From assembly GCA_013002995.1 (NCBI GenBank), contig JABDLO010000224.1, positions 1 through 39,035 on the forward strand: DNA of 39,035 bases, in the 5' to 3' direction. Under the pieces are notes generated by a model that was not told the origin of the DNA, searched no databases, and was given only the letters and a program-made list of their open reading frames with translations. A program made the position numbers and the translations under genes. Within the stretch, counting starts at the first letter, position 1; each line of letters opens with the position of its first letter. The DNA comes from Saprospiraceae bacterium (GTDB lineage Bacteria > Bacteroidota > Bacteroidia > Chitinophagales > Saprospiraceae). Below, piece after piece: positions 1 to 39,035 of this stretch.

Positions 1-1141
1 CCCTGGAAGTGACTGTCTCTGATATTCCATTGATATCAAAAGTCCACAAATAAGATTGGATGTTTTCTTCATCATAACTTTCATTTACAAACTCAATGGT
101 GTTAACCCCACAGGAATTTATGAGGAAGTCTCTATCCCCTATTACTCCATCAGATTGTATCTGGGCAACTACAGATTGTTCACATTCAGCAACATTAAAC
201 TGAAAGTCTCTACTCAATTCTCCCATCAATTGACCATTTCTATACTCTTTCACACACACACCTACTACAAATTGTCCCAATTGTGTAGGGATTCCTGTTA
301 TTCTTCCTGTTTCCGGATCTATCGTAATCTGAGGATCTCCACCAAGTGGATTTACAGCACTGTAGGTGGGAAGTCTAAAGGTTACTTCATCATATAAAGG
401 CCTGCAACGAGCAGGATCTGGTCTTACTCCGGTACAACTACTTGGATCTCCTCCATTTACACCATCCTGTCCTCCTGAAGTTAATGGAGCACAAAACTCA
501 TATACCAATTGGTCGCCTTCTACATCAATGGCACTGTGATCAAAATTTACACGCTCTCCAAGACAGATTACAATAGGAGGAAAGTTTTTAAACTTCGGAC
601 TGTTATTACAGGTTTCCTGTGCCAGAGGAGAGATTTCTACTGTGAATGCCGCTCCTGTTTCATCAGGCCGCACAATATTGTTGATGGTAACATTTCTACA
701 ACACCTCTGGTAAGCAATTAAATAAGTTTCATTACTAATAGGAAGGGTCACAGTAAACCTATATACTCCTTTTTCAACCCTGATATTGGGAGGAATGATT
801 AGGCATGGATTAGCATCAATATTGTTAACCAATTCGATCTCCGTTGCAGGCTGATTAGCAATAGTTCTCACATAACTCCATCTATTCCCATCTCCTTTGT
901 ATACCCCAAAAGAGGCATCAAAGTCAAAATCTGCTCCTCCTCCAGCTGCATCACGATACATAGTGAATATGACTTCATATCTTATGGTGTTGCTTGTCGT
1001 GTCAACTCCCATACAATTATAAACCACATCACCACCTACAATATGCCTGCTTGATGCAGACCCCATCACAAATATGATCCCACTAATAATTAATAGGATT
1101 CTGAGGTATCTGTAGTTCAACTCTTGAAAGTTAAATATCAT
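1..1141 (-). CDS. Large secreted PKD-type surface protein, N-terminal part (3' end outside window)
   Basis: The minus frame is open from the left edge to an ATG at 1141, giving about 380 residues with no stop. It starts with a basic and hydrophobic signal peptide (residues about 1-31), then the mature-start motif HIVGGDVVYNC and later FTMYRDAAGGG, LIAYQRCCRN and FDHSAIDVEGD. These are hallmarks of a family of giant Bacteroidota surface proteins that usually carry PKD repeats and a gliding-motility/type IX secretion C-terminal domain. The last visible residues (FVNESYD, then SYLWTFDING) look like the start of a PKD domain. The C-terminus lies outside, so the secretion signal cannot be checked. 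An in-frame ATG at 1180 is a possible longer start. I prefer 1141 because an exact -7 promoter element ends only 14 bases upstream of 1180. Function beyond surface display or adhesion is inference. Confidence 0.8.
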   Translation of the reverse strand, partial: MIFNFQELNYRYLRILLIISGIIFVMGSASSRHIVGGDVVYNCMGVDTTSNTIRYEVIFTMYRDAAGGGADFDFDASFGVYKGDGNRWSYVRTIANQPATEIELVNNIDANPCLIIPPNIRVEKGVYRFTVTLPISNETYLIAYQRCCRNVTINNIVRPDETGAAFTVEISPLAQETCNNSPKFKNFPPIVICLGERVNFDHSAIDVEGDQLVYEFCAPLTSGGQDGVNGGDPSSCTGVRPDPARCRPLYDEVTFRLPTYSAVNPLGGDPQITIDPETGRITGIPTQLGQFVVGVCVKEYRNGQLMGELSRDFQFNVAECEQSVVAQIQSDGVIGDRDFLINSCGVNTIEFVNESYDEENIQSYLWTFDINGISETVTSR

Positions 1142-1194
1142 ATTCCTTTTATAACCAATGTTTTTAACGGTTTCAATCATTATTTTGGTATGGA

Positions 1195-1202
1195 CAAATT
1201 TA
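1195..1202 (-). promoter_or_regulatory. Bacteroidota -7 promoter element (TAAATTTG)
   Basis: The minus strand reads TAAATTTG, an exact match to TAnnTTTG, 53 bases upstream of the ATG at 1141. No convincing -33 TTG was found at the expected distance. Transcription would start near 1188, leaving a leader of about 47 bases for the 1141 start. Confidence 0.5.
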
Positions 1203-1230
1203 ATCACCTAAACTTGAAGATATTATGTAA

Positions 1231-1258
1231 TAGACGACATTACCGTATAAGGCGTCTA
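1231..1258. repeat. Inverted repeat in divergent intergenic region
   Basis: TAGACG (1231-1236) is mirrored exactly by CGTCTA (1253-1258) around a 16-base centre that also pairs in part. It lies in the 301-base gap between the surface protein and tsaC, upstream of the minus-strand -7 element. It could be a regulator site or chance. Nothing else was recognised in the gap 1203-1442. Confidence 0.35.
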
Positions 1259-1442
1259 TGATATAAAGACATAAAACAAGCAAGTTTTGTTGCCCGGACA
1301 TGATTAGAAAAAATTAAGTATAAAAATTACACTTCCTTAAAATGTTTTATTCCCTTGATTCGTTTTTATGGCTTTAGAGCGGAAGATAACAACTTAAATT
1401 TATTTTTCCAGCTATTATATTTTTCATAGATACGTAGAGGAA

Positions 1443-2012
1443 ATGGTATTTGCAGATAAGATGCATGATGTAATAAGAGTGCTAGAAAATAATGGAGTAA
1501 TTGTATATCCCACTGACACCGTATGGAGTATCGGTTGTAGCGTATTCTGTCAATCTGCTCTGGATAGGATCCACAAATTGAAAGGAAGGTCACAGGAAGA
1601 TCCGTTTGTCTTATTATGTAGTGATCTTGAAATGCTTAAAAAATACGTGAATCGTATTCATCCTAGAGTGGAGACATTATTATCTTATCATGAACGGCCT
1701 CTAACCATTGTCTACCCACAAGCAAGAAATCTACCTCAATATGCCTTAGCCGCTAATGGCAGTGTAGCCATCAGAATTACAACGGAACCTTTTTCCAGAA
1801 CAATCATTGAGCTTTTGGGCTGTCCCCTGGTTTCCACATCTGCCAGCATATCAGATGATAGGTTCGCTTCTTCATTTGAAGATATCGATACTATAATATT
1901 ACAAGAAGCCGATTATGTATGTTACCACAACAGACATCTGAAGTCAGACAAGGAGCCTTCGATCATTGCCAGCTATGATAAAAAAGGGGAATTGATTTTT
2001 ATAAGGACTTAA
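1443..2012 (+). CDS. tsaC: L-threonylcarbamoyladenylate synthase (Sua5/YrdC/YciO family)
   Basis: This 189-residue cytosolic protein should make threonylcarbamoyl-AMP from threonine, bicarbonate and ATP, the first step of the tRNA t6A37 modification. The single YrdC domain fills the chain. PTDTVWSIG near residue 23 matches the family motif PTDTVYGLG with Trp for Tyr. KLKGRSQEDPF corresponds to the nucleotide-binding KxR...PF segment, and VSTSAS near the C-terminus to the STSAN motif. It lacks the extra C-terminal Sua5 domain, so it is the short YrdC/YciO type; a YciO-like paralogue of unknown function is the alternative. The ATG at 1443 follows AGAGGAA. Its TAA overlaps the convergent ctpA stop by four bases. 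Confidence 0.85.
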   Translation: MVFADKMHDVIRVLENNGVIVYPTDTVWSIGCSVFCQSALDRIHKLKGRSQEDPFVLLCSDLEMLKKYVNRIHPRVETLLSYHERPLTIVYPQARNLPQYALAANGSVAIRITTEPFSRTIIELLGCPLVSTSASISDDRFASSFEDIDTIILQEADYVCYHNRHLKSDKEPSIIASYDKKGELIFIRT

Positions 2013-3607
2013 TTCAGGTATTTCTTCAAATCAGTATCGGACCTAAAGTAATTTATTGCTTCATCAATGAATGGATCTCCAATGTTCATAACACTGTCTC
2101 TTGCTTGTTCTCCCTGTAGTTGATATTTTAATTCTGACTGAATCTTCTTTAAAAGGAATGATTCATTTATTGTAAGGTTGTTGATATCCTGGCCTTCTTT
2201 TTCATCACTCAGAAAAGACCTAAATCCACTTACAGAAAGTTCCTGTGATTGTTTCCTTTCTCTAGTTAAATAAACATATTCAGGAATATAAGAAAAAATT
2301 GCCTCCGAGTGAGCCAAACTCATTGTGCTATCAGCAGGAATAAAAACATCAGGTATGATCCCTCCACCACCATAGACAGGACGTCTCAGGAGATTGGTAT
2401 AATATACCATGGAGTCATTAACGGCTGTGCTTTCCTCACTTCCATACACCTCTCCATTGGAATATCTATCATATATATCATTATCATAATCCTTGAGGTC
2501 ATCATATGGCTTCTGGATTGACCTTCCTGTAGGGGTATAATACCTAGAAATCGTCAACCTGATGGCACCTCCATTCCTTAGTGAATATTGTTCCTGAACT
2601 AAGCCCTTACCAAATGAACGCCTTCCAATTATTAATCCCCGATCCCAATCCTGGATCGCACCGGCAATAATCTCAGAACCTGAAGCCGACCCTTCGTCAA
2701 TAAGCACTGCAATCTGATCAACAGGAAAAAAGTTTTTGCCTGTCGTCTTGTATTCAACTTTACTTTCATTTTTACCTTGAGTATATACAAGCAGCCTTCC
2801 TTTTTCATTAAATAACTGACTTAGTATATTGACTGTTTCAGGTAGATATCCTCCTGGGTTATCTCTCAAGTCAATGATCAGATGTCTAGTCTGATGGTCT
2901 TCAATCATCCTTTCTAGGGCATCCATAAATTCTTTGTAAGTATTGGAAGAAAATCTATCGATCTTGATGTAGGCGATATCATCATCGATTTCGTACGCAA
3001 CTTTACTAGATTGGATGTTTATATCATCCGGAAGTATAATAGATTCAATAATATCTTCCTGACCAGGCCTTTTAATTGTTACTTTGAGTTGCTCTACCTG
3101 ATCTGCCCTCAGAAATTCTCTGATCTCACTGTATTCTTTATTAACTCCCGCCACCACACTATCACCTATGGCGATGATCTTGTCAAAAGGTTGAATACCT
3201 GTCTTATCAGCCGGAGATCCTTTAATTACACGTGAAATCCTCAGGGTATCATTGATATAAAACGATTCAACTCCAATACCACGGTAGAAACCATTCATCT
3301 GCTCACTTATTCCTTTAAGTTGAGCTTCTGAGAGATAAATGGAATGAGGATCTAAGTCATCCATTATATCTCTAATGGCAGATTCCAGGATGGCATCACT
3401 ATCCAGTGAATCAACGTATTTTGATTCTATAAACCTGACAATTTCCTCTACTCTTCCTACCGGTCCAGCAAGGTTTCCCTCCACATCAACTGCCTCAATA
3501 AAGTCCAGATCACCGTCATTCATTTTCACACCTACAAGCATTCCTACCACTACCATAGCAGCTAGAAGAAAAGGTTGCCATATTTCATACCTGGTATTAG
3601 TTTTCAT
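2009..3607 (-). CDS. ctpA: C-terminal processing serine protease (S41 family) with PDZ domain
   Basis: This is a 532-residue periplasmic, membrane-anchored protease. A single hydrophobic segment at residues 11-28 is the anchor. A PDZ domain spans roughly 105-185 (FYRGIGV, ISRVIKGSPADKTGI, FDKIIAIGDS), followed by the S41 catalytic core (LRDNPGGYL at 247-255; DEGSASGSE at 304-312; RRSFGKG at 329-335). Ser309 and Lys334 have the 25-residue spacing of the Ser/Lys dyad of tail-specific proteases. The family trims C-termini of envelope proteins; the substrate here is unknown. The gene is divergent from the Lrp gene and converges on tsaC with stop codons sharing TTAA at 2009-2012, so no room is left for a separate terminator. 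Confidence 0.9.
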   Translation of the reverse strand: MKTNTRYEIWQPFLLAAMVVVGMLVGVKMNDGDLDFIEAVDVEGNLAGPVGRVEEIVRFIESKYVDSLDSDAILESAIRDIMDDLDPHSIYLSEAQLKGISEQMNGFYRGIGVESFYINDTLRISRVIKGSPADKTGIQPFDKIIAIGDSVVAGVNKEYSEIREFLRADQVEQLKVTIKRPGQEDIIESIILPDDINIQSSKVAYEIDDDIAYIKIDRFSSNTYKEFMDALERMIEDHQTRHLIIDLRDNPGGYLPETVNILSQLFNEKGRLLVYTQGKNESKVEYKTTGKNFFPVDQIAVLIDEGSASGSEIIAGAIQDWDRGLIIGRRSFGKGLVQEQYSLRNGGAIRLTISRYYTPTGRSIQKPYDDLKDYDNDIYDRYSNGEVYGSEESTAVNDSMVYYTNLLRRPVYGGGGIIPDVFIPADSTMSLAHSEAIFSYIPEYVYLTRERKQSQELSVSGFRSFLSDEKEGQDINNLTINESFLLKKIQSELKYQLQGEQARDSVMNIGDPFIDEAINYFRSDTDLKKYLN

Positions 3608-28116: not shown

Positions 28117-31017
28117 TTATTTTTTGTTAAAAATATAAACGCTACCATAATTTTGAAAAACCCCACCGTTATCAAAATCTGGGGAGCCAACAGCAACAGT
28201 ATTTTCATAAATGGTTACACTTGTGCCGAAATGATCCAGTGTCTTACCATTAGAAGGTCTGATATGGATAGTTCCATGATTATAGAAGATATATGCCGAT
28301 CCTAATTCAAACTCTCCATCCAGAGTAGCGTATTTTTCCCCCACTACAATTCCCTTGTTACCAATATCGACACTATTACCAAATTGCACCCCTGTTTGTG
28401 GGTCCAGTGAATTGATTTTATCTGTTTGAGCCCAACCCAATGAATTTCCAAATGTGTAGGCCGCTCCTGATTCAACTGTTGTACCGACTGTGTTCAAGGG
28501 AGATCCAACAATTACGCTTTCATTATAAATCGCAACGCTTGTTCCAAATTGATCTCCCGGATTCCCATCAGCAGCAATAATACGAGCTTGTTGTGACCAT
28601 GTGGATCCATTATAAAAAAATATATATGCTGATCCAGCATCTACTTTTGTATCAAAATCATCTTTTGGTGAACCAACGACTATAAAATTATCATAAATGG
28701 CCACACAATGACCAAAATTATCTTCAGCTTCCCCATCACTTGCTGTCAGGATTGCAAAATGGTTCCAGGTGCTTCCATTGAAATGATATACATAAGCAAC
28801 ACCTTGTTCTGTAGCTGTCAAAACATCCTTTTTAGGGCATCCAACAACTGCGAAGTTACCATAGATCGCAACAGAAGATCCATAAGAATCATCAGTTTCG
28901 CCGTCTATCGCTGTTAACTTTATGCTTTCGTCCCAACCTGAGCTTTGATTCTTGAATATATATGCAGCTCCCTGGTCATCATTAGTAGAAATATCTGCAC
29001 CAGGTGACCCAACAATGGCAACATCACCATAAACATCTACACTAGAACCGAAACGATCAAAAGCAGCAAGATCCGCAGGCAACAACACGTTTCCAAAAGA
29101 CCACGTACTTCCCAGGTTCTCCTTCACAAAAGCTGATCCCGCACTTGCCATACCAGAAAATTCACGATTTGGCGCACCTATTATCATAAATTCTCCCTGT
29201 ATAGAAACATCCTCACCGTAGTTTGATCCAAAATCGTTAAAATACAATCTTTCATTTTCACTCATTGATGGACTATATGGGGTTCCCCATGTATCTGAGT
29301 ATGACCTGGTAAACGATAGCCAGACAGAACCATTATATCCTTCAAATTCTTTAGTTTCTTCATTGTAACGGACTGCTCCCGGCAAAGGTGCATCTTCATC
29401 ATCTCCAAGTTTGAGCTTTCCATTGACTTCAAGTGTCGAACCAGGAGAATCTGTTCCAATTCCTATATACCCGTTTTTCAATATTGTGATAGCATTACGG
29501 CGATTAAACATTGATGTACCATTTCCCACAGAAAACAATCTATCCATTTCATTCCATCCAGTTGTATTTAATGGGGAATATTCTGAATTGTAAGATCCTA
29601 TGACTGTTTCATAAGCTGAAGGAGCAGAAGTTCCCAAACCTATTGCTGTGGATACTAATCCCGAGGCTCTCGTATTCTCACCAAAGGCGAAGGAAATATT
29701 TCCAATATATTCAGGGGACCAATCTTCTGAGCTGGTTAATCTTCCTCCACGGAAAGCCATTTTTTGAATATCAACAAACATTAAGTCACCATTGAATAAT
29801 TCCAGAGGATCTGGTTTATCATCCAAACCAATTAAGAAATCTCCATCGCCCACGAATGTCTTTCCGGAAAAATAACCGGCAAAACCTACAGATCCTGCAT
29901 TGGTGCCATACACTCCATAATTTAAATGGTCAGTTCCTAACCCAATGCCATAGACTCCATACCCATTTTCTCCAGAGGTGGCCCCATAGACACCATGGCC
30001 TAATTGTGATGCAGACTCAAACCTTCCGCCTGAGGCAAATGCAAAACCAGTTTTAGTAGCGGCACCGTATACTGCTGCTCCATCTTCTCCCGCCGATTCA
30101 AAATATCCACCATAATTAGAAACACCATATTCATTGTTGGTAGCAGAACCGTATATTGCCCTACCATTGGGCTTATCATTATAAATTGTAACGGTCCAAT
30201 CAGTTGCTCCGTCTCCATTGATGCTTAATTGAGATTGGGGAGTGTCCGTTCCCAAACCAATCTCTCCACCCTTCAACATAGTCAAAGCATTGGAAGGTGT
30301 TATAACTGATCCATTTCCTATAGAAAAAAGACGATCAGAATCATTCCATCCCGTATTCGTTACAGGTGAATATCGTGAATTAAATCTACCAATGGCTGTT
30401 TCATATCCTGAAGAAGTTATAATCCCTCGCCCCAATGCAACTGAATAGTCTCCATTTGCAAAACTTGAATTTCCCAAGGCTATTGAATTTTCTCCTTGTG
30501 CATTCACCGTATTACCATAAGCAAAAGAACCAATCCCAATTAAATCAGGTGACCAATCACTTGAATTCGTCATCATTCCACCCCTGAAAGCACCTACTTC
30601 CTGGTTAAAAAAGAAAAGCGTGTCCCACAATAACTCTCCGGTTTCAGGTAATGAAGACTTACCAAAAATAAAGTTTGTTGCATTTATATCAGAAACCTGT
30701 CTTACCAAATTCCCACTTTGTTCAAATGCCCCATTGATTGTACTTAAGTTTATCCAGTATGCACCATTAAAGTAGTAAAACAAATTGTCAGAGCTCTGAT
30801 AGATTATCAAACCCGTTGCAGGTGTTCCAATACCATTAACCAAAGCAGTATCAGAACGAGGCATTAGAAATCCACGATCTACTGAGAAGACTTCTAGTGC
30901 TGCACTTTCATCCGGATCTGTAGTATTGATACCGACACTTTGAGCTGACAGCTCAATGGAAGTAATTATTAATAACAGGCCAATTAAAATTACAAAGGGA
31001 GTGTGATTCTTCATCAT
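28117..31017 (-). CDS. Secreted chimeric repeat protein: YadA-like head modules plus seven FG-GAP blades
   Basis: This 966-residue exported protein has a signal peptide ending SIELSAQ at about 26. The opening SVGINTTDPDESAALEVFS is typical of Bacteroidota tail-fibre-like surface proteins. Residues 141-265 and 418-535 are two copies of one module: FRGG, SSDWSPDLIG, then GENSIALGNSSFANGDYSVALG head-type hepta/tetradecapeptide repeats, TGWNDSDRLFSIGNG and a GTDTP closing. Between them lies a VYG/YGVYG-rich stretch (285-385). Residues about 596-966 hold seven FG-GAP-like units starting near 596, 655, 711, 767, 823, 878 and 929, each with FGxSVxIYGNxxxVGSP and GSAYIF, enough for one seven-bladed propeller. 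No S74 chaperone or type IX C-terminal domain is seen. A surface or adhesion role is inferred. Confidence 0.8.
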   Translation of the reverse strand: MMKNHTPFVILIGLLLIITSIELSAQSVGINTTDPDESAALEVFSVDRGFLMPRSDTALVNGIGTPATGLIIYQSSDNLFYYFNGAYWINLSTINGAFEQSGNLVRQVSDINATNFIFGKSSLPETGELLWDTLFFFNQEVGAFRGGMMTNSSDWSPDLIGIGSFAYGNTVNAQGENSIALGNSSFANGDYSVALGRGIITSSGYETAIGRFNSRYSPVTNTGWNDSDRLFSIGNGSVITPSNALTMLKGGEIGLGTDTPQSQLSINGDGATDWTVTIYNDKPNGRAIYGSATNNEYGVSNYGGYFESAGEDGAAVYGAATKTGFAFASGGRFESASQLGHGVYGATSGENGYGVYGIGLGTDHLNYGVYGTNAGSVGFAGYFSGKTFVGDGDFLIGLDDKPDPLELFNGDLMFVDIQKMAFRGGRLTSSEDWSPEYIGNISFAFGENTRASGLVSTAIGLGTSAPSAYETVIGSYNSEYSPLNTTGWNEMDRLFSVGNGTSMFNRRNAITILKNGYIGIGTDSPGSTLEVNGKLKLGDDEDAPLPGAVRYNEETKEFEGYNGSVWLSFTRSYSDTWGTPYSPSMSENERLYFNDFGSNYGEDVSIQGEFMIIGAPNREFSGMASAGSAFVKENLGSTWSFGNVLLPADLAAFDRFGSSVDVYGDVAIVGSPGADISTNDDQGAAYIFKNQSSGWDESIKLTAIDGETDDSYGSSVAIYGNFAVVGCPKKDVLTATEQGVAYVYHFNGSTWNHFAILTASDGEAEDNFGHCVAIYDNFIVVGSPKDDFDTKVDAGSAYIFFYNGSTWSQQARIIAADGNPGDQFGTSVAIYNESVIVGSPLNTVGTTVESGAAYTFGNSLGWAQTDKINSLDPQTGVQFGNSVDIGNKGIVVGEKYATLDGEFELGSAYIFYNHGTIHIRPSNGKTLDHFGTSVTIYENTVAVGSPDFDNGGVFQNYGSVYIFNKK

Positions 31018-31796: not shown

Positions 31797-32616
31797 TTAG
31801 ATAGTAGCTGTGATAATTTTTCTATTCCTATAACCCCACTTCATTGCACAAACCGATACAATAAATAATAACAAGGTCATTGTGATTAACCCCCATTCTG
31901 ATAAGGTTGGAATGGCAGCTCCTATCACAAATGTTACATTATCGTAGTATACTCCAGTTGGGGCATATTGAGTGGATGCAGCTAGAAATTCAAATTGCAA
32001 AATGTAACCTTCCCACGCCCCATCAATTGTACCCGTAATGCTTGATCCTTCAGTCCACATATTATCATTGGCAGTGTTAAAAGTATTAAAGTGAACTAAA
32101 GCTAATGTGTTAGGATCCACCACCTTTACGCATACTGCAGTTTCTTTGAAATTAGGGTCCGTTGGATTGGGGGCAAATTGTGGTAGAGCTGTAACATGAT
32201 CAAAGGTAAAACTGTAAAACCTCCCTATATCTGCAGCAGTGAGTATACGCTCCTGGAATACATTCGCTTCTACAAAATTCCCAAATATATGTTCTGGATT
32301 GTTATAATCACTGTATACATTTAGATATTGAGCACCACCATTAGGACCGGGAATAACATTATCCAAACTTGAAAATCCAGGGCCTCCATTGGGAGCCGGG
32401 AATGGACCATAACCCCCTAAGTATCCTCCCCCCTGAATCAAATAAATTACCAAACACCAACCATCCACTACCACTCAATGCTGCTCCATCTCCAAAAGTC
32501 AATGATTCGAAATTTTCGGTGTAGCTTATTTGAGAATGAACTGAATTGGAAAAGCTTAAAAAGAATATTGAAGCTATAATAAAGTTTTATTTCAACAAGA
32601 AATTGATTGTTTTCAT
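31797..32616 (-). pseudogene. Secreted IPTL-CTERM protein with a nonsense codon and a frameshift
   Basis: The gene starts at the ATG at 32616 (MKTINFLLK) and codon 10 is TAA (32587-32589). The same frame then continues with a hydrophobic signal core (FIIASIFFLSFSNSVHSQ) and a mature part (ISYTENFESLTFGDGAALS). At a run of six G (32428-32433 on the complement) the frame must slip by one base to continue as GGGYLGGYGPFPAPNGG and onward to the end. The C-terminus carries an IPTL-CTERM sorting tag: IPTLSEWGL, a hydrophobic helix and a basic end (KWGYRNRK). The intact form would have been a secreted, membrane-sorted protein of about 270 residues with a lectin-like beta-sandwich (inferred). An open piece at 31797-32474 alone lacks a signal peptide. 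Confidence 0.8.
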
Positions 32617-34116: not shown

Positions 34117-34205
34117 TAAGTTCTCGACAGTAAGTTGTGTTTTGTGAATACGTCTTATACATGGCTGTAATTCCTTTTATATTTGGATCTTCAAGTAAAA
34201 GCAAT

Positions 34206-35084
34206 ATGAAATTTTCAGCTCAAAATGAATACGGAAAGGTAGAAGAGGTTTACATAAAGTCGATTGAAGACGGATTTAGAAACCAGTCTGAGCTTGATAA
34301 TCACTGGAAAGACTTAGGATACTTGTTCCAACCGGATTTCGATAAAGCATGTAAGGAGTATGATAATTTTAAAAACATCATTAAAACATATGCGACTACT
34401 GTTCAATCATTCCCGGAAGATGATTTAACAGGTATCGATTCCATCTATTGCCGGGACGCCAGCATCGTTACCGATCATGGTGTAATCCTCTGCAACATGG
34501 GCAAGAATCAAAGGAATACAGAACCTGAATCTCAAGCCCGGTTTTTTCAGTCTCAAGGAGTATCCATACTAGGAAGGGTAAATACACCAGGTCTTATAGA
34601 AGGAGGAGACACGGCATGGTTAGATCAAGAAACATTGATAGTAGGAAAAGGATACCGCTCCAATGCTGAGGGCGTGGCTCAATTAAAAGCGCTTCTGAAT
34701 CCATACGGAATAAAAGTCCTTTCTTACGACCTCCCACATTTCCAAGGTCCTCAGGATGTATTTCATCTGATGTCCATTTTCAGTCCCGTTGATAAAGATC
34801 TGGCAGTGGTTTATTCACCTTTGATGCCTGTAGCCTTTCGGCAAATGTTACTGCAAAATGGATACAAACTCATTGAGGTTCCAAAAGAAGAATTCTACTC
34901 AATGGGATGTAATGTCCTTGCTTTGGCTCCACGAATATGTATGATGACAAAAGGAAGTCCTAAGACGGAAAAGCTTTTAACTGATGCCGGATGTGAAGTC
35001 ATTTCATACGAAGGAAAACATATTAGTGTAGCAGGAGGAGGAGGCCCAACTTGCCTCACCCGACCTTTTAAAAGAGCTGTTTGA
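34206..35084 (+). CDS. Dimethylarginine dimethylaminohydrolase/arginine-deiminase-related hydrolase
   Basis: This 292-residue protein has the pentein fold of guanidino-modifying enzymes. Visible features are SIYCRDASIVTD (79-90), the GGD turn in LIEGGDTAW (130-138), a likely catalytic His187 in PQDVFHLMSIFSP, and catalytic Cys283 in the C-terminal GGGGPTCLTRP. This set fits the DDAH/amidinotransferase group, which hydrolyses methylated arginines or arginine to citrulline-type products. Substrate is not fixed. A longer frame from a GTG at 34137 exists, but the ATG at 34206 gives the usual N-terminus (MKFSAQNEYGKVEEVYI). Confidence 0.85.
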   Translation: MKFSAQNEYGKVEEVYIKSIEDGFRNQSELDNHWKDLGYLFQPDFDKACKEYDNFKNIIKTYATTVQSFPEDDLTGIDSIYCRDASIVTDHGVILCNMGKNQRNTEPESQARFFQSQGVSILGRVNTPGLIEGGDTAWLDQETLIVGKGYRSNAEGVAQLKALLNPYGIKVLSYDLPHFQGPQDVFHLMSIFSPVDKDLAVVYSPLMPVAFRQMLLQNGYKLIEVPKEEFYSMGCNVLALAPRICMMTKGSPKTEKLLTDAGCEVISYEGKHISVAGGGGPTCLTRPFKRAV

Positions 35085-35159
35085 AATAAGAGTCAAAGCT
35101 GAGGTAAAATCCATGATGCTTGATAATCTTTGATTTTCTTTATTTTGGGTAAGGAAGAA

Positions 35160-35561
35160 ATGAACCCGAAAGTAGATACATATTTAATAGATGGATGTGG
35201 ACGCTGTAAGCTTTACAAAACACCACAATGCAAGGTCCATAACTGGACAGAAGAGCTGAAACTCCTCAGGAGCATCGTCATTGAATCAGGCCTTAATGAA
35301 ACCTATAAATGGTCTCAACCTTGCTATACTTATAACAATAACAATGTGCTTATTGTAACTGCATTTAAGGACTATGCTTGCATTTCATTTTTTTAAGGTG
35401 CTTTGCTTAATGATCCTCATGACATACTCATTGATCCTGGCAAAAACTCTCAAGCTGCCCGACAACTGATATTCGAATCTGTACAAGATATTTTAGATAT
35501 CGAAGTACAGATTAAAGCCTGCATACCAAATATTCATTCAGCTTTTTTAGCATTGAAGTGA
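35160..35561 (+). pseudogene. YdeI/DUF1801-family gene with nonsense codon and deletion
   Basis: The gene starts at the ATG at 35160 (MNPKVDTYL) and reads the family's Cys-rich insert (DGCGRCKLYKTPQCKVHNW), then WSQPCYTYNNNNVLIV and FKDYACISFF. A TAA at 35394-35396 falls where relatives have Lys (FFKGALL); AAA to TAA explains it. The same frame continues correctly: GALLNDPHDILIDPGKNSQAARQL and onward through VQIKAC. It then jumps to IPNIHSAFLALK and stops. That final piece resembles a downstream region of full-length proteins, so about 30-40 codons appear deleted and the C-terminus is lost. Full-length relatives are near 190 residues. No function is expected. Confidence 0.8.
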
Positions 35562-35716: not shown

Positions 35717-38700
35717 CTACATTCCTGGCAGATATTTAGCTATAAATTCCTTGATCTCAATGATACATCCCATCCTTTCTTTCATATCTGAAAATTTACC
35801 CAGTATGTGTTTTAGAAATAACATGTGCTCATATTCTCCAACCAGTACTTTGATGTTCATTGTTTTTTCAATCTGTTTGTGATACATAGATAAGAGTTCT
35901 TTGCACATAGCCTGGTGTGATGAAACAGAATCGGAAGGACTTGTGAGTAATGAGGTCACCTTCAATTGCATTTCTGAAAGTTGCAACCATAAATCTGTGC
36001 GATCAACTCTTCGATACTGCAGTTTCTTAATCCATTGATCCAGGTAAGCATCATATTCCATACCCATCTCTTCATTGATATCTATACGAGGAGTTTTCAA
36101 TCCAAGGTTGCACAATGTTGCAAGTGTAATAAAGGATGTGAAATGGTAAATCGAATTTTTAGATTCAATACCGATCTTCTTTCCTGCTTCCATGTACTTA
36201 TATGCCGAGTCTTCAAGATATCTTCTGCAATCAGGTTTTGATTCTGCCAGCAATGCGGCCCTTTTCAGGATCGAGCCATGAGATGAAAGACTTTCTGCAT
36301 AATCATTGAAACTGATATGGCTTCTGAAGGAGTCCAGGATTTCTTCCATTGTAAATGGACACCCTTCTTTAGACCCTTTCTTATCATACAATCGGGCAAG
36401 GAATTTTGATTTGATATTGTAATAGGTATCGATGTATGCATAAAGGTATTTGCCCTCCCCTGTGCGGAACAATTCTTCAAACTTTTCAATAGCAGCTTCA
36501 TATCGACCCAGGAGGTGATAGATGATGGCTTCCTTTTCAATGATCTCGCTGGACAAAGGCCCAAGCGATTCAGCCTTTTCAACCAATTCTTGCGTTTTCT
36601 TAAAGATCGCGAGTCCTACCTTCTCCTCCCCTTTTGAAATCTCCACACTTTCAGACTTAGAAATGATGTTATCCAACTCCAGTACAATTTCAATATCAAG
36701 GGTCTGCTCATTCCTATCCTGACGACTACTCTGGTAAGGAGACAATTTATAGAATTGATCACCGTAACATTGATAAGCACCCCAGGTATTATTGCTCTTG
36801 TTATCCAGGTAACATGCTCTTCTTGCTCGTGTTACAGCATCACCAAAGTGTGCTCCGCTCAACAAAGCATCATAAAGATGTTCTGCAAAGACTCTTGCAG
36901 AATGATCGTTAACCTTCCATCCTGCTATGACAACTGCCTTCACTCCTATATCTATCAATTGTGTACCCACATTGGCTGCCAACTTGTGGCGATGTCTTAC
37001 ATAATTTTCCATCCTGTCATCCACCTTGCCACTGTAACAGCAATTGATAAATACGAATTCAGGAATGGCTGTTAATTGCTTAATGGTACCAGGAGTCAGC
37101 AGTTGATCACCTCCAATGGCAATTCCGATCCGATTATTCTTCAGATCATATAACCCATGTGAGGCAATATGCAGCACACGGTATTCTCTTGCAAAAAGTG
37201 CCTTGGTTATTTCCAGTGGATTTTTTGCAATCTTTTCTTCAACTGCATAACCCTTAGCTTTCAGTTTAACGATGACACTCTGTGCCTCCGCCTTGGCTCC
37301 GGGAAGTTGAGGCAGAAAACTCTGATCAAATATTGGGTCACCTATAACCAGCGCTCTCTTGGCAGTAACTAAGGCTGGTTGTAAGATTGCTTCTTCATTG
37401 TATAATTGCCGGATCAATCCAGACTCAATGAAAGTTGGTTTCTCACCATAATTGGTATCGTGAAACATCTCCCATGGAAATTGTGCAGAAAATGAATCCA
37501 TCCTCCACTGTATATTGCGATGGTTTCTAACAAAGTCTTTATATTGATTGGGGAGCAGCAACTCGAATATCACCTTTGAAGATTCTTTGTCCCACACATC
37601 TGATGTTGACAACTCATCAGCAAGGTACATAGCCAATTGAAGATCAGATCGGACGTTATCTTTAGACGCGCTGGATAATCCATTGTAAGTGGTAAAAGCC
37701 AGATGTCTTGATTTACGCCCCTTATCATCTTTTTCTTCTACGACTTCAGTGGTGAAAGATTGCCACCAACTTCTGCTTTGATCCCTTAAGAACCTTTTCC
37801 TTCTTCCGTATCCTTTCTCGATATCATTGGTGACTTTAATTTTCAAGTGGTTTTCTTCCTCCTCAAGCCGTTTCAATATCTTGTAACACTCATAAGCATT
37901 GTCTTCATAATAATCGACAAATTCGACCTTTTGAATGGGTGGAAGATCAGTTGCCTCTCCATCGAATCCAAGTAAAATCTTGTTTGCATTCTGGACACCC
38001 AGGATAATGCTTCGGATGCTTTCTTCTCTTGGTAATCGACCATATGCACTGCCTATCATCAATGTTGAAACTGAAGTTCTCACATCCCGATATTCATTGC
38101 CAGGAAAGTTATCCCTAAAGAAAAGAGCATATTTAAGCATCGCCTTCTCTACAGATCTTGCCATACGGTAGCCGGTAAGTTCATCTTTAGACCCCAGCCC
38201 TATTATCACTGCACCTGTAGGAATATCGTGCTTATCATACATGATGGCTTGCTCTCCGATGCGACCAGGGTAAAACCCCATTCTATGCCTTTCGGTGAGT
38301 TTTCCGTTTAGATATCCGTCCAGTGCATCCTCAGCACTTACTACTCCATCTCCCATAAAATGTCCGATCATAACCGGGTAATTGGACCATTTTAGGTCGC
38401 CATTGAATATTTCAACCTGGAGTGGTGCTGCTTTTACTTCCTCCATGGATACTTCTTCTTCGATACCCATGATTCGATCCATTGCTTTCTCGAGGTTATA
38501 ATAATCAAGACTTTCTGGCCTCTGAATTAAAGGAGTCTTCCTTTGGCCTGATCTTGCAGCTCTTCTCACCGGCTTATCTTTAAATGCCGGACTCCTGGTA
38601 TCACCATGGTCAACCAAATCCAATATGCCATTAAATAGCTCTTCTTCACAAGCAAGGTTACCATGTTCAACACTCGTGTAATAGAGATTGGATCGAAGGA

Positions 38701-39035
38701 TATTAGATGGAATTCCGGATGACCAAGTTACACTGCCATCCCCATTTTCTGTTGAGGTATATTTGATCTTTTTTCCAAAGAAGAATCGGTCTACAACCTT
38801 AAATCCATTGATCGTTTCATCCGCTTTTCCTGCAACATAGTAAATGTTTTTCCGATCCGATTCTTTCAGTAGATAATTAGAAAAAGTATTACTGAATTGG
38901 TTAAAATGAGAAAGGGAATCAGTTGATATTGGTGCCATCTTATGCTTTCCTACTATTTCACGATAATGCTCCCAGTTCTTTTTATTATAAATTCTCCTGT
39001 CATTGGTCGGAAGGAGCTCGAAGACCCCCTTATAC
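35717..39035 (-). CDS. CHAT-domain cysteine protease with N-terminal alpha/beta-hydrolase-like part and helical C-terminus (5' end outside window)
   Basis: The minus frame is open from the stop at 35717 to the right edge, at least 1105 residues; the internal ATG at 38938 is probably not the start. Numbering from that Met: residues 66-96 (NGDGSVTWSSGIP ... SVEHGNLA) look like the Asp/His end of a PGAP1/DUF7379-type alpha/beta hydrolase whose nucleophile lies off-window. Residues about 175-300 (YPVMIGHFMGDGVVSAEDAL, ERHRMGFYPGRIG, GAVIIGLG) form a second conserved domain of unknown role. The CHAT protease spans about 520-735 with catalytic His594 (HIASHGL) and Cys634 (NCCYSG). The C-terminal 330 residues are helical with TPR-like repeats (YHLLGRYEAAIEKFEELF). 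CHAT proteases are caspase-like, and some act in immunity or cell death. No signal peptide is seen in the visible part. Confidence 0.8.
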   Translation of the reverse strand, partial: YKGVFELLPTNDRRIYNKKNWEHYREIVGKHKMAPISTDSLSHFNQFSNTFSNYLLKESDRKNIYYVAGKADETINGFKVVDRFFFGKKIKYTSTENGDGSVTWSSGIPSNILRSNLYYTSVEHGNLACEEELFNGILDLVDHGDTRSPAFKDKPVRRAARSGQRKTPLIQRPESLDYYNLEKAMDRIMGIEEEVSMEEVKAAPLQVEIFNGDLKWSNYPVMIGHFMGDGVVSAEDALDGYLNGKLTERHRMGFYPGRIGEQAIMYDKHDIPTGAVIIGLGSKDELTGYRMARSVEKAMLKYALFFRDNFPGNEYRDVRTSVSTLMIGSAYGRLPREESIRSIILGVQNANKILLGFDGEATDLPPIQKVEFVDYYEDNAYECYKILKRLEEEENHLKIKVTNDIEKGYGRRKRFLRDQSRSWWQSFTTEVVEEKDDKGRKSRHLAFTTYNGLSSASKDNVRSDLQLAMYLADELSTSDVWDKESSKVIFELLLPNQYKDFVRNHRNIQWRMDSFSAQFPWEMFHDTNYGEKPTFIESGLIRQLYNEEAILQPALVTAKRALVIGDPIFDQSFLPQLPGAKAEAQSVIVKLKAKGYAVEEKIAKNPLEITKALFAREYRVLHIASHGLYDLKNNRIGIAIGGDQLLTPGTIKQLTAIPEFVFINCCYSGKVDDRMENYVRHRHKLAANVGTQLIDIGVKAVVIAGWKVNDHSARVFAEHLYDALLSGAHFGDAVTRARRACYLDNKSNNTWGAYQCYGDQFYKLSPYQSSRQDRNEQTLDIEIVLELDNIISKSESVEISKGEEKVGLAIFKKTQELVEKAESLGPLSSEIIEKEAIIYHLLGRYEAAIEKFEELFRTGEGKYLYAYIDTYYNIKSKFLARLYDKKGSKEGCPFTMEEILDSFRSHISFNDYAESLSSHGSILKRAALLAESKPDCRRYLEDSAYKYMEAGKKIGIESKNSIYHFTSFITLATLCNLGLKTPRIDINEEMGMEYDAYLDQWIKKLQYRRVDRTDLWLQLSEMQLKVTSLLTSPSDSVSSHQAMCKELLSMYHKQIEKTMNIKVLVGEYEHMLFLKHILGKFSDMKERMGCIIEIKEFIAKYLPGM

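What the first reader, a model, noticed from the sequence alone, without database searches (positions are those of the whole stretch)
35717..39035. CHAT protease fused to an alpha/beta-hydrolase-like domain and TPR-like tail: candidate conflict or defence effector
Seen: His594/Cys634 CHAT dyad, an N-terminal segment resembling the Asp/His end of an alpha/beta hydrolase, an extra conserved middle domain, and a helical tail. Known: CHAT proteases activate gasdermins and act in Craspase-type and other prokaryotic immune systems. Inference: a hydrolase and protease in one chain, beside a stretch of decayed and accessory genes, could be a self-contained effector whose protease controls the lipase-like part. 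No gasdermin or nuclease partner is seen inside the window; partners may lie to the right of 39035.
Basis: partly seen in the sequence, partly recalled or inferred. Interest (0 to 1): 0.65.

Follow-up and report, generated by a model that had tools for sequence, protein, structure and literature searches.

The report
CHAT protease fused to two lipases
The window ends inside the gene for a rare, giant bacterial protein that joins two lipase-type enzymes, a macro-type domain and a caspase-like (CHAT) protease in one chain; relatives repeatedly sit beside known immune genes (TIR, STAND, patatin), so it is probably a self-contained cell-suicide or anti-invader device not described in the papers searched.

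Summary
Confirmed and extended. Window 35717-39034(-) encodes the C-terminal 1105 residues of a protein of about 1790 aa; the contig stops at 39035 and the missing N-terminal half is on another small contig of the same genome (C175). The whole protein, read from 65 full-length relatives, is: N-terminal beta-rich domain - alpha/beta-hydrolase 1 (DUF7379) - alpha/beta-hydrolase 2 (LCAT/lysosomal phospholipase A2 fold, Z 27) - macro-type domain - CHAT protease - TPR tail. All three catalytic centres are invariant in all 65. The flexible linker between phospholipase and macro domain is poorly conserved except for an Arg in a P..(S)R[G/S/A] motif (61 of 65): a candidate self-cleavage site. The gene is patchy (17 of 150 genomes of the family, 7 of 296 across the phylum), partly on plasmids. 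Neighbours are not generally conserved, but TIR genes lie directly beside it in several lineages, more often than beside other CHAT genes of the same genomes (5/16 against at most 2 of about 134); nSTAND-WD40, SIR2, EAD11, caspase, patatin, nuclease and endolysin genes occur elsewhere. The window's own copy stands alone in a TIR-free genome. Best reading: a protease-gated phospholipase conflict effector; defence function inferred, not shown.

The parts
35717..39034 (-). C-terminal 1105 codons plus stop of the lipase-lipase-macro-CHAT-TPR gene; 5' end beyond the contig edge (continued on G000:C175, bases 2-2056, minus strand)
38585..39034 (-). C-terminal part of alpha/beta-hydrolase 2 (LCAT/LPLA2 type), residues 1-150
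   Evidence: LCAT Pfam match in relatives; fold match of relative L004 to LPLA2 Z 27.0, 299 residues, rmsd 2.9
38738..38740 (-). catalytic Asp99 codon of hydrolase 2 (GDGSVTW)
   Evidence: invariant in 65 of 65
38663..38665 (-). catalytic His124 codon of hydrolase 2 (EHGNLA)
   Evidence: invariant in 65 of 65
38423..38584 (-). flexible linker (residues 151-204) between hydrolase 2 and macro-type domain
   Evidence: pLDDT 31-54 over most of it; mean pairwise identity 21%
38561..38563 (-). Arg158, candidate P1 residue of self-cleavage (KPVRR-A); Arg in 61 of 65 relatives
   Evidence: cleavage itself is inference
37841..38431 (-). macro-type domain (residues 202-398), nearest to macroH2A and M17 aminopeptidase N-terminal domain
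   Evidence: VIA Z 15.9 over 169 residues, rmsd 2.9; weak profile hit to 3jru E 0.022
36758..37576 (-). CHAT protease domain (residues 487-759)
   Evidence: PF12770 E 2.9e-27; separase Z 21.3, Csx29 Z 20.4
   Evidence: invariant
   Evidence: invariant
36905..36907 (-). Asp710 of GWKVND, invariant; candidate S1-pocket acid by analogy with separase
   Evidence: 65 of 65; analogy from general knowledge
35738..36697 (-). TPR tail (residues 780-1099), poorly conserved
   Evidence: TPR profile hits, fold match to the TPR region of ASK1 Z 17.3; mean pairwise identity 23.5%

Best explanation
A cytosolic, self-contained conflict effector in which a CHAT protease gates two lipase-type enzymes. At rest the protein is inert. 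On a trigger sensed by the TPR tail and/or the macro-type domain (in some lineages probably fed by a TIR or STAND neighbour), the CHAT protease becomes active and cuts the flexible linker after the conserved Arg, releasing or unlocking the tandem DUF7379/LCAT-type hydrolases, which attack membrane phospholipids and arrest or kill the cell before an invader can multiply. Shown here: the domain order, the three complete invariant catalytic centres, the near-obligate fusion, the conserved Arg in a disordered linker, patchy and plasmid-borne distribution, and enriched TIR neighbours. Inferred: lipid substrates, self-cleavage, trigger, and the defence outcome.
For: Domain order by Pfam in five relatives and by models. 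Ser/Asp/His of both hydrolases and His/Cys of CHAT invariant in 65 of 65. Hydrolase 2 is closest to phospholipases: lysosomal PLA2 Z 27, LCAT Z 24, T6SS Tle4 Z 21. The lipase half was found in 15 of 150 family genomes, never without the CHAT half except where a contig ends. Linker pLDDT 31-54 and 21% identity, yet Arg at one column in 61 of 65; the same P..SR motif is kept in shorter, about 30%-identical ABH2-macro-CHAT proteins of another family of the phylum. TIR adjacent in L014, L058/60/61, L077, L081, Rhizobium plasmid L101, G007, G042, G148, G080; in the 16 family genomes other than the window's own that carry the gene, 5 copies lie within 5 kb of a TIR_2 gene against at most 2 of about 134 other CHAT genes, Fisher p about 1e-4. 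The tree needs at least five changes of the TIR-neighbour state. Other neighbours: nSTAND-WD40, SIR2, EAD11, caspase C14, patatin of CBASS-effector type, Endonuclease_NS, FRG, GH19/GH108. Patchy: 17 of 150 and 7 of 296.
Against: Most copies, including the window's own and its two nearest relatives L004 and L005, have no recognised immune neighbour, and the window genome has no TIR_2 gene at all. PADLOC and NCBIfam do not know the protein. No phage-resistance data exist. In the Leeuwenhoekiella clade the locus is syntenic, as for an ordinary resident gene. Four relatives lack the linker Arg in the alignment. CHAT and lipase folds also serve housekeeping roles. The Fisher comparison was made by reading output tables, and about 30 CHAT places were not listed.
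Confidence: 0.5

Rival explanations
1. TIR-coupled, Thoeris-like signalling: a TIR neighbour makes an ADP-ribose-type messenger that the macro-type domain binds, switching on CHAT and the phospholipases. Solo copies would then use other triggers or a TIR encoded elsewhere.
For: TIR genes recur directly beside the gene, some of ThsB type; type II Thoeris uses a macro-domain effector and type IV a caspase-like protease, both activated by TIR products (PMC12847820).
Against: The window genome has no TIR; most copies have none nearby; Pfam's Macro family was not hit and the sequence is nearer to the M17 aminopeptidase N-terminal domain; where ADP-ribose-binding macro domains have a conserved Asp, this family appears to have none (by eye); other neighbours (nuclease, FRG, endolysin) do not make such messengers.
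Confidence: 0.2
2. A regulated lipid-remodelling or programmed-lysis enzyme in normal physiology (for example envelope turnover or social lysis in gliding Bacteroidota), with no role against invaders.
For: Most copies are solo, locally syntenic in Leeuwenhoekiella, and FAD-oxidase or peptidoglycan-binding neighbours recur in Flavobacteriaceae.
Against: Rare and patchy even inside one family, on plasmids and in four phyla, with TIR, STAND, SIR2 and EAD11 neighbours.
Confidence: 0.22
3. Part of a larger inter-bacterial toxin locus (a secreted or injected lipase effector processed by its own CHAT domain).
For: Hydrolase 2 resembles the T6SS lipase effector Tle4 (Z 21.4).
Against: No membrane segment or signal peptide suggested by hydropathy, no secretion or immunity gene conserved beside it, and LPLA2/LCAT fit better than Tle4.
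Confidence: 0.06

Closest known systems
Csx29 (TPR-CHAT) of type III-E CRISPR, Craspase
   Same: CHAT protease with TPR repeats; CHAT fold match Z 20.4
   Different: TPR lies N-terminal in Csx29 and C-terminal here; Csx29 is switched by the gRAMP RNA complex and cuts a separate protein; here lipases and a macro-type domain are fused
Separase and other clan CD proteases (gingipain)
   Same: His/Cys dyad, fold Z 21.3, invariant Asp in the GWxVxD motif consistent with a basic P1 residue
   Different: eukaryotic cohesin cleavage or secreted protease; no fused lipase
Lysosomal phospholipase A2 / LCAT family (PF02450)
   Same: hydrolase 2: same fold and Ser/Asp/His order, Z 27
   Different: those are secreted or lysosomal eukaryotic enzymes acting alone
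Alpha/beta-hydrolase plus caspase pairing of vWA-MoxR (VMAP) conflict systems, Kaur et al. 2020 (PMC7159879)
   Same: a caspase-superfamily protease regularly paired with an alpha/beta hydrolase in a predicted conflict system
   Different: encoded as neighbouring genes in a ternary system with MoxR and vWA; here both are in one chain with two hydrolases and no vWA/MoxR genes among the neighbour families listed
Thoeris types II and IV (PMC12847820)
   Same: TIR gene next to an effector with a macro domain (II) or a caspase-like protease (IV); here both are in one chain, with a TIR neighbour in a minority of relatives
   Different: fused phospholipases, no TIR in the window genome, macro-type domain not shown to bind a messenger
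CBASS CapV-type patatin phospholipases
   Same: membrane-phospholipid attack as the suicide step; a patatin matching CBASS phospholipase-effector models lies near the gene in L103 and L077
   Different: unrelated lipase fold and nucleotide-based activation

Membership tests
CHAT proteases (PF12770) | CHAT domain above curated score with His/Cys dyad | tested here: met
   96.3 bits against cut-off 24; dyad invariant in 65
LCAT/LPLA2-type lipases (PF02450) | profile match, fold and Ser-Asp-His triad | tested here: met
   56.7 bits against 21 in L004; Z 27; triad invariant; window genome carries AHSMGG on C175
DUF7379 (PF24096) | profile match in hydrolase 1 | tested here: met
   113.9 bits against 33 in L004; triad invariant
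Macro domains | macro fold | tested here: met
   macroH2A1.1 Z 15.9, rmsd 2.9, 169 residues
Macro domains | ADP-ribose-binding residues or ligand binding | tested here: inconclusive
   no Pfam Macro hit; M17_N-like by sequence; no binding test possible
Craspase (type III-E CRISPR) | gRAMP/Cas7-11 partner | not tested
   no such gene seen near the gene in the window or on the 3.4-kb C175 contig; genome not searched for it
Bacterial gasdermin systems | gasdermin gene beside the protease | not tested
   none recognised among the neighbour families listed, but not searched by profile or fold
Thoeris | TIR gene in operon with the effector | tested here: not met
   no TIR_2 match anywhere in the window genome; met only in a minority of relatives
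Known or candidate defence protein in PADLOC 2.0.0 | specific model match | tested here: not met
   no match for four relatives, a marginal CHAT-region match for one
VMAP/vWA-MoxR ternary systems | vWA and MoxR neighbours | tested here: inconclusive
   absent from the 25 commonest neighbour families listed

The most novel reading that the evidence does not exclude
A new single-chain immune executioner: nucleotide-type signals (from TIR or STAND neighbours where present) are sensed by a macro-type domain and TPR tail, the CHAT protease cuts itself free after a conserved Arg, and the released tandem phospholipases dissolve the membrane, joining in one protein what Thoeris II (macro), Thoeris IV (caspase-like) and CBASS (phospholipase) do separately.
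Probability: 0.2. Interest if true: 0.85.

Novelty: new variant of a known kind. Interest (0 to 1): 0.6.

Why it matters
CHAT and caspase-like proteases are known to switch on bacterial death effectors, usually a separate protein. Here protease and would-be executioner lipases are fused, with a conserved linker Arg that gives a directly testable cleavage site. If right, it is a pyroptosis-like zymogen that needs no gasdermin, and it would link TIR, macro, caspase-like and phospholipase immunity in one molecule.

Tried and rejected
Extending C1 to the right: impossible, the contig ends at 39035. Sequence overlap between the ends of C1 and C175: none found, so contiguity rests on homology (both halves broken at contig ends, aligning to L004 residues 10-698 and 703 onward); the halves were not joined and were analysed apart. 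A universally conserved operon partner: rejected, only clade-specific synteny. Phage or viral relatives: none in annotated phages or viral contigs. Literature for DUF7379, TPR-S, or a CHAT-phospholipase-macro protein: nothing relevant in the open-access library.

Full report
What is in the window. The minus-strand frame 35717-39034 is open to the right edge and gives 1105 residues. It is the only full match in its own genome (a second, weak hit is an ordinary CHAT protein on C176). The contig ends at 39035. A search of the same genome with the N-terminal half of relative L004 finds the missing part at the end of contig C175, minus strand, with an ATG start (MSNDIKLKF...) and both hydrolase nucleophile motifs (SHSRGG, AHSMGG). 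The two contig ends do not overlap, so their adjacency rests on homology: the two halves align to L004 residues 10-698 and 703 onward.

Anatomy. 79 related loci were collected; 65 carry an uninterrupted frame of at least 1700 residues, most of 1760-1850, that could be aligned. Pfam on five of them gives DUF7379, LCAT and CHAT above the curated cut-offs, with sub-threshold or borderline TPR-S/TPR matches in the tail. Two models (mean pLDDT 86 and 82) were compared with solved structures. Hydrolase 2 matches lysosomal phospholipase A2 (Z 27.0, 299 residues, rmsd 2.9) and LCAT (Z about 24); hydrolase 1 matches bacterial lipases (Z 15-16); residues 202-398 of the window protein match macro domains (macroH2A1.1 Z 15.9) and the N-terminal domain of M17 aminopeptidases (Z about 15); CHAT matches separase (Z 21.3) and Csx29 (Z 20.4); the tail matches the TPR region of ASK1 (Z 17.3). 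A profile of the middle domain also finds the M17 aminopeptidase 3jru, weakly (E 0.022). Where ADP-ribose-binding macro domains carry a conserved Asp, this family appears not to (by eye), so ligand binding is open.

Catalytic residues. In L004 numbering hydrolase 1 has Ser248, Asp433, His463; hydrolase 2 Ser629, Asp802, His827; CHAT His1324, Cys1364. All eight are identical in 65 of 65 relatives. In the window protein this gives Asp99, His124, His626 and Cys666.

A candidate switch. Mean pairwise identity is 45% in CHAT, 38-41% in the hydrolases and macro domain, but 21% in the linker between hydrolase 2 and macro domain and 23.5% in the tail. The linker is predicted disordered. One column in it is Arg in 61 of 65, with a Pro a few residues before it in 53; typical forms are KPVSR-AG, QPKSR-SG and PPGAR-GE, in the window KPVRR-AA. 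The same motif is kept in 30%-identical proteins of another family of the phylum that have hydrolase 2, macro and CHAT but neither hydrolase 1 nor tail. Separase-like proteases with an Asp in the S1 pocket cut after Arg (general knowledge), and Asp710 is invariant. I infer self-cleavage at this Arg; it is not shown. The tandem-lipase half was never found without the CHAT half in 150 family genomes other than at contig ends, while the macro-CHAT-TPR part occurs alone in two of them and on a Rhizobium plasmid.

Distribution. 17 of 150 genomes of the window's family, in 15 of 112 genera, and 7 of 296 across the phylum have the gene or its core. Relatives occur in Bacteroidota, Pseudomonadota, Verrucomicrobiota and Thermodesulfobacteriota and on plasmids of Azotobacter, Paracoccus, Ensifer and Rhizobium. 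The tree mixes phyla inside the proteobacterial clade, with the usual caution for metagenome bins. No relatives were found in phages or viral contigs.

Neighbours. There is no universal partner: 26 of 76 loci have a co-directional gene within 150 bp downstream. Those genes are unusual: among 49 such proteins seven have TIR, three EAD11, two Endonuclease_NS, two M19 peptidase, with single CHAT and FRG proteins found as well, and PADLOC tags several as ThsB or TIR effectors. Further loci show TIR plus patatin-TIR plus caspase (L077), SIR2-EAD11 plus TIR and an NTPase-like protein (L078), SIR2 plus nSTAND (Ensifer plasmid), and TIR-nSTAND-WD40 on both sides with a GH108 endolysin-like gene (Rhizobium plasmid). 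In the window's family TIR genes lie beside the gene in G004, G007 (the only TIR of that genome), G042 (with a patatin of CBASS-effector type), G148 and G080. Five of 16 copies lie within 5 kb of a TIR_2 gene, against at most two of about 134 other CHAT genes listed for the same genomes (Fisher p about 1e-4; counted by eye from the tables). The tree needs at least five changes of this state, so the association arose or was lost repeatedly.

The window copy itself has none of this: no TIR_2 in the whole genome, a divergent unrelated gene upstream on C175, and to the left a DDAH-like gene, a DUF1801 fragment and a DUF3472 protein.

Judgement. The protein is more elaborate than described: two lipases, a macro-type domain, CHAT and TPR. 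The best-supported role is a conflict effector whose CHAT protease gates membrane-attacking lipases. Architecture, conservation, fusion, linker Arg, patchiness and TIR enrichment are shown; substrate, cleavage, trigger and defence are inferred. Nearest published ideas are the caspase plus alpha/beta-hydrolase gene pairs of VMAP systems (PMC7159879) and Thoeris types II and IV (PMC12847820). No description of this architecture was found in the open-access library, which does not prove that none exists.

Noticed in passing
window 28117-31017 (-): 966-aa protein with a YadA-head repeat and seven FG-GAP_2 repeats, a large secreted surface-type protein.
   Followed up: no
window 31797-32474 (-): ORF ending in an IPTL-CTERM sorting motif; the GTG start looks doubtful and the gene may be truncated.
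   Followed up: no
window 35130-35396 (+): 88-aa DUF1801 fragment, matching only positions 1-41 of 85: probably a decayed gene.
   Followed up: no
window 34137-35084 (+): DDAH/arginine-deiminase-like protein next to the CHAT gene; no sign of a functional link.
   Followed up: no
L057, L064, L075 (Niabella): In three Niabella genomes the gene is split over several frames: pseudogenes or sequencing errors.
   Followed up: no
L017, L024, L025, L028, L103, L105: FAD-linked oxidases of the FAD_binding_4/ALO type recur beside the gene (L024, L025 and L103 by sequence likeness only); role unknown.
   Followed up: partly
L098 2420-5704, L099 2515-5760: Paracoccus plasmid copies follow directly on a protein of about 1090 aa; one has an SBP_bac_3 domain: possibly a sensor partner.
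   Followed up: partly
L111 4565-7756, L112 1497-4145: Shorter relatives in another family of the phylum: one LCAT-like hydrolase plus macro plus CHAT, without hydrolase 1 and TPR.
   Followed up: partly
L101 7986-10811, L108 9278-12055, L095 1188-3986: Lipase-less macro-CHAT-TPR proteins that start at the linker.
   Followed up: partly
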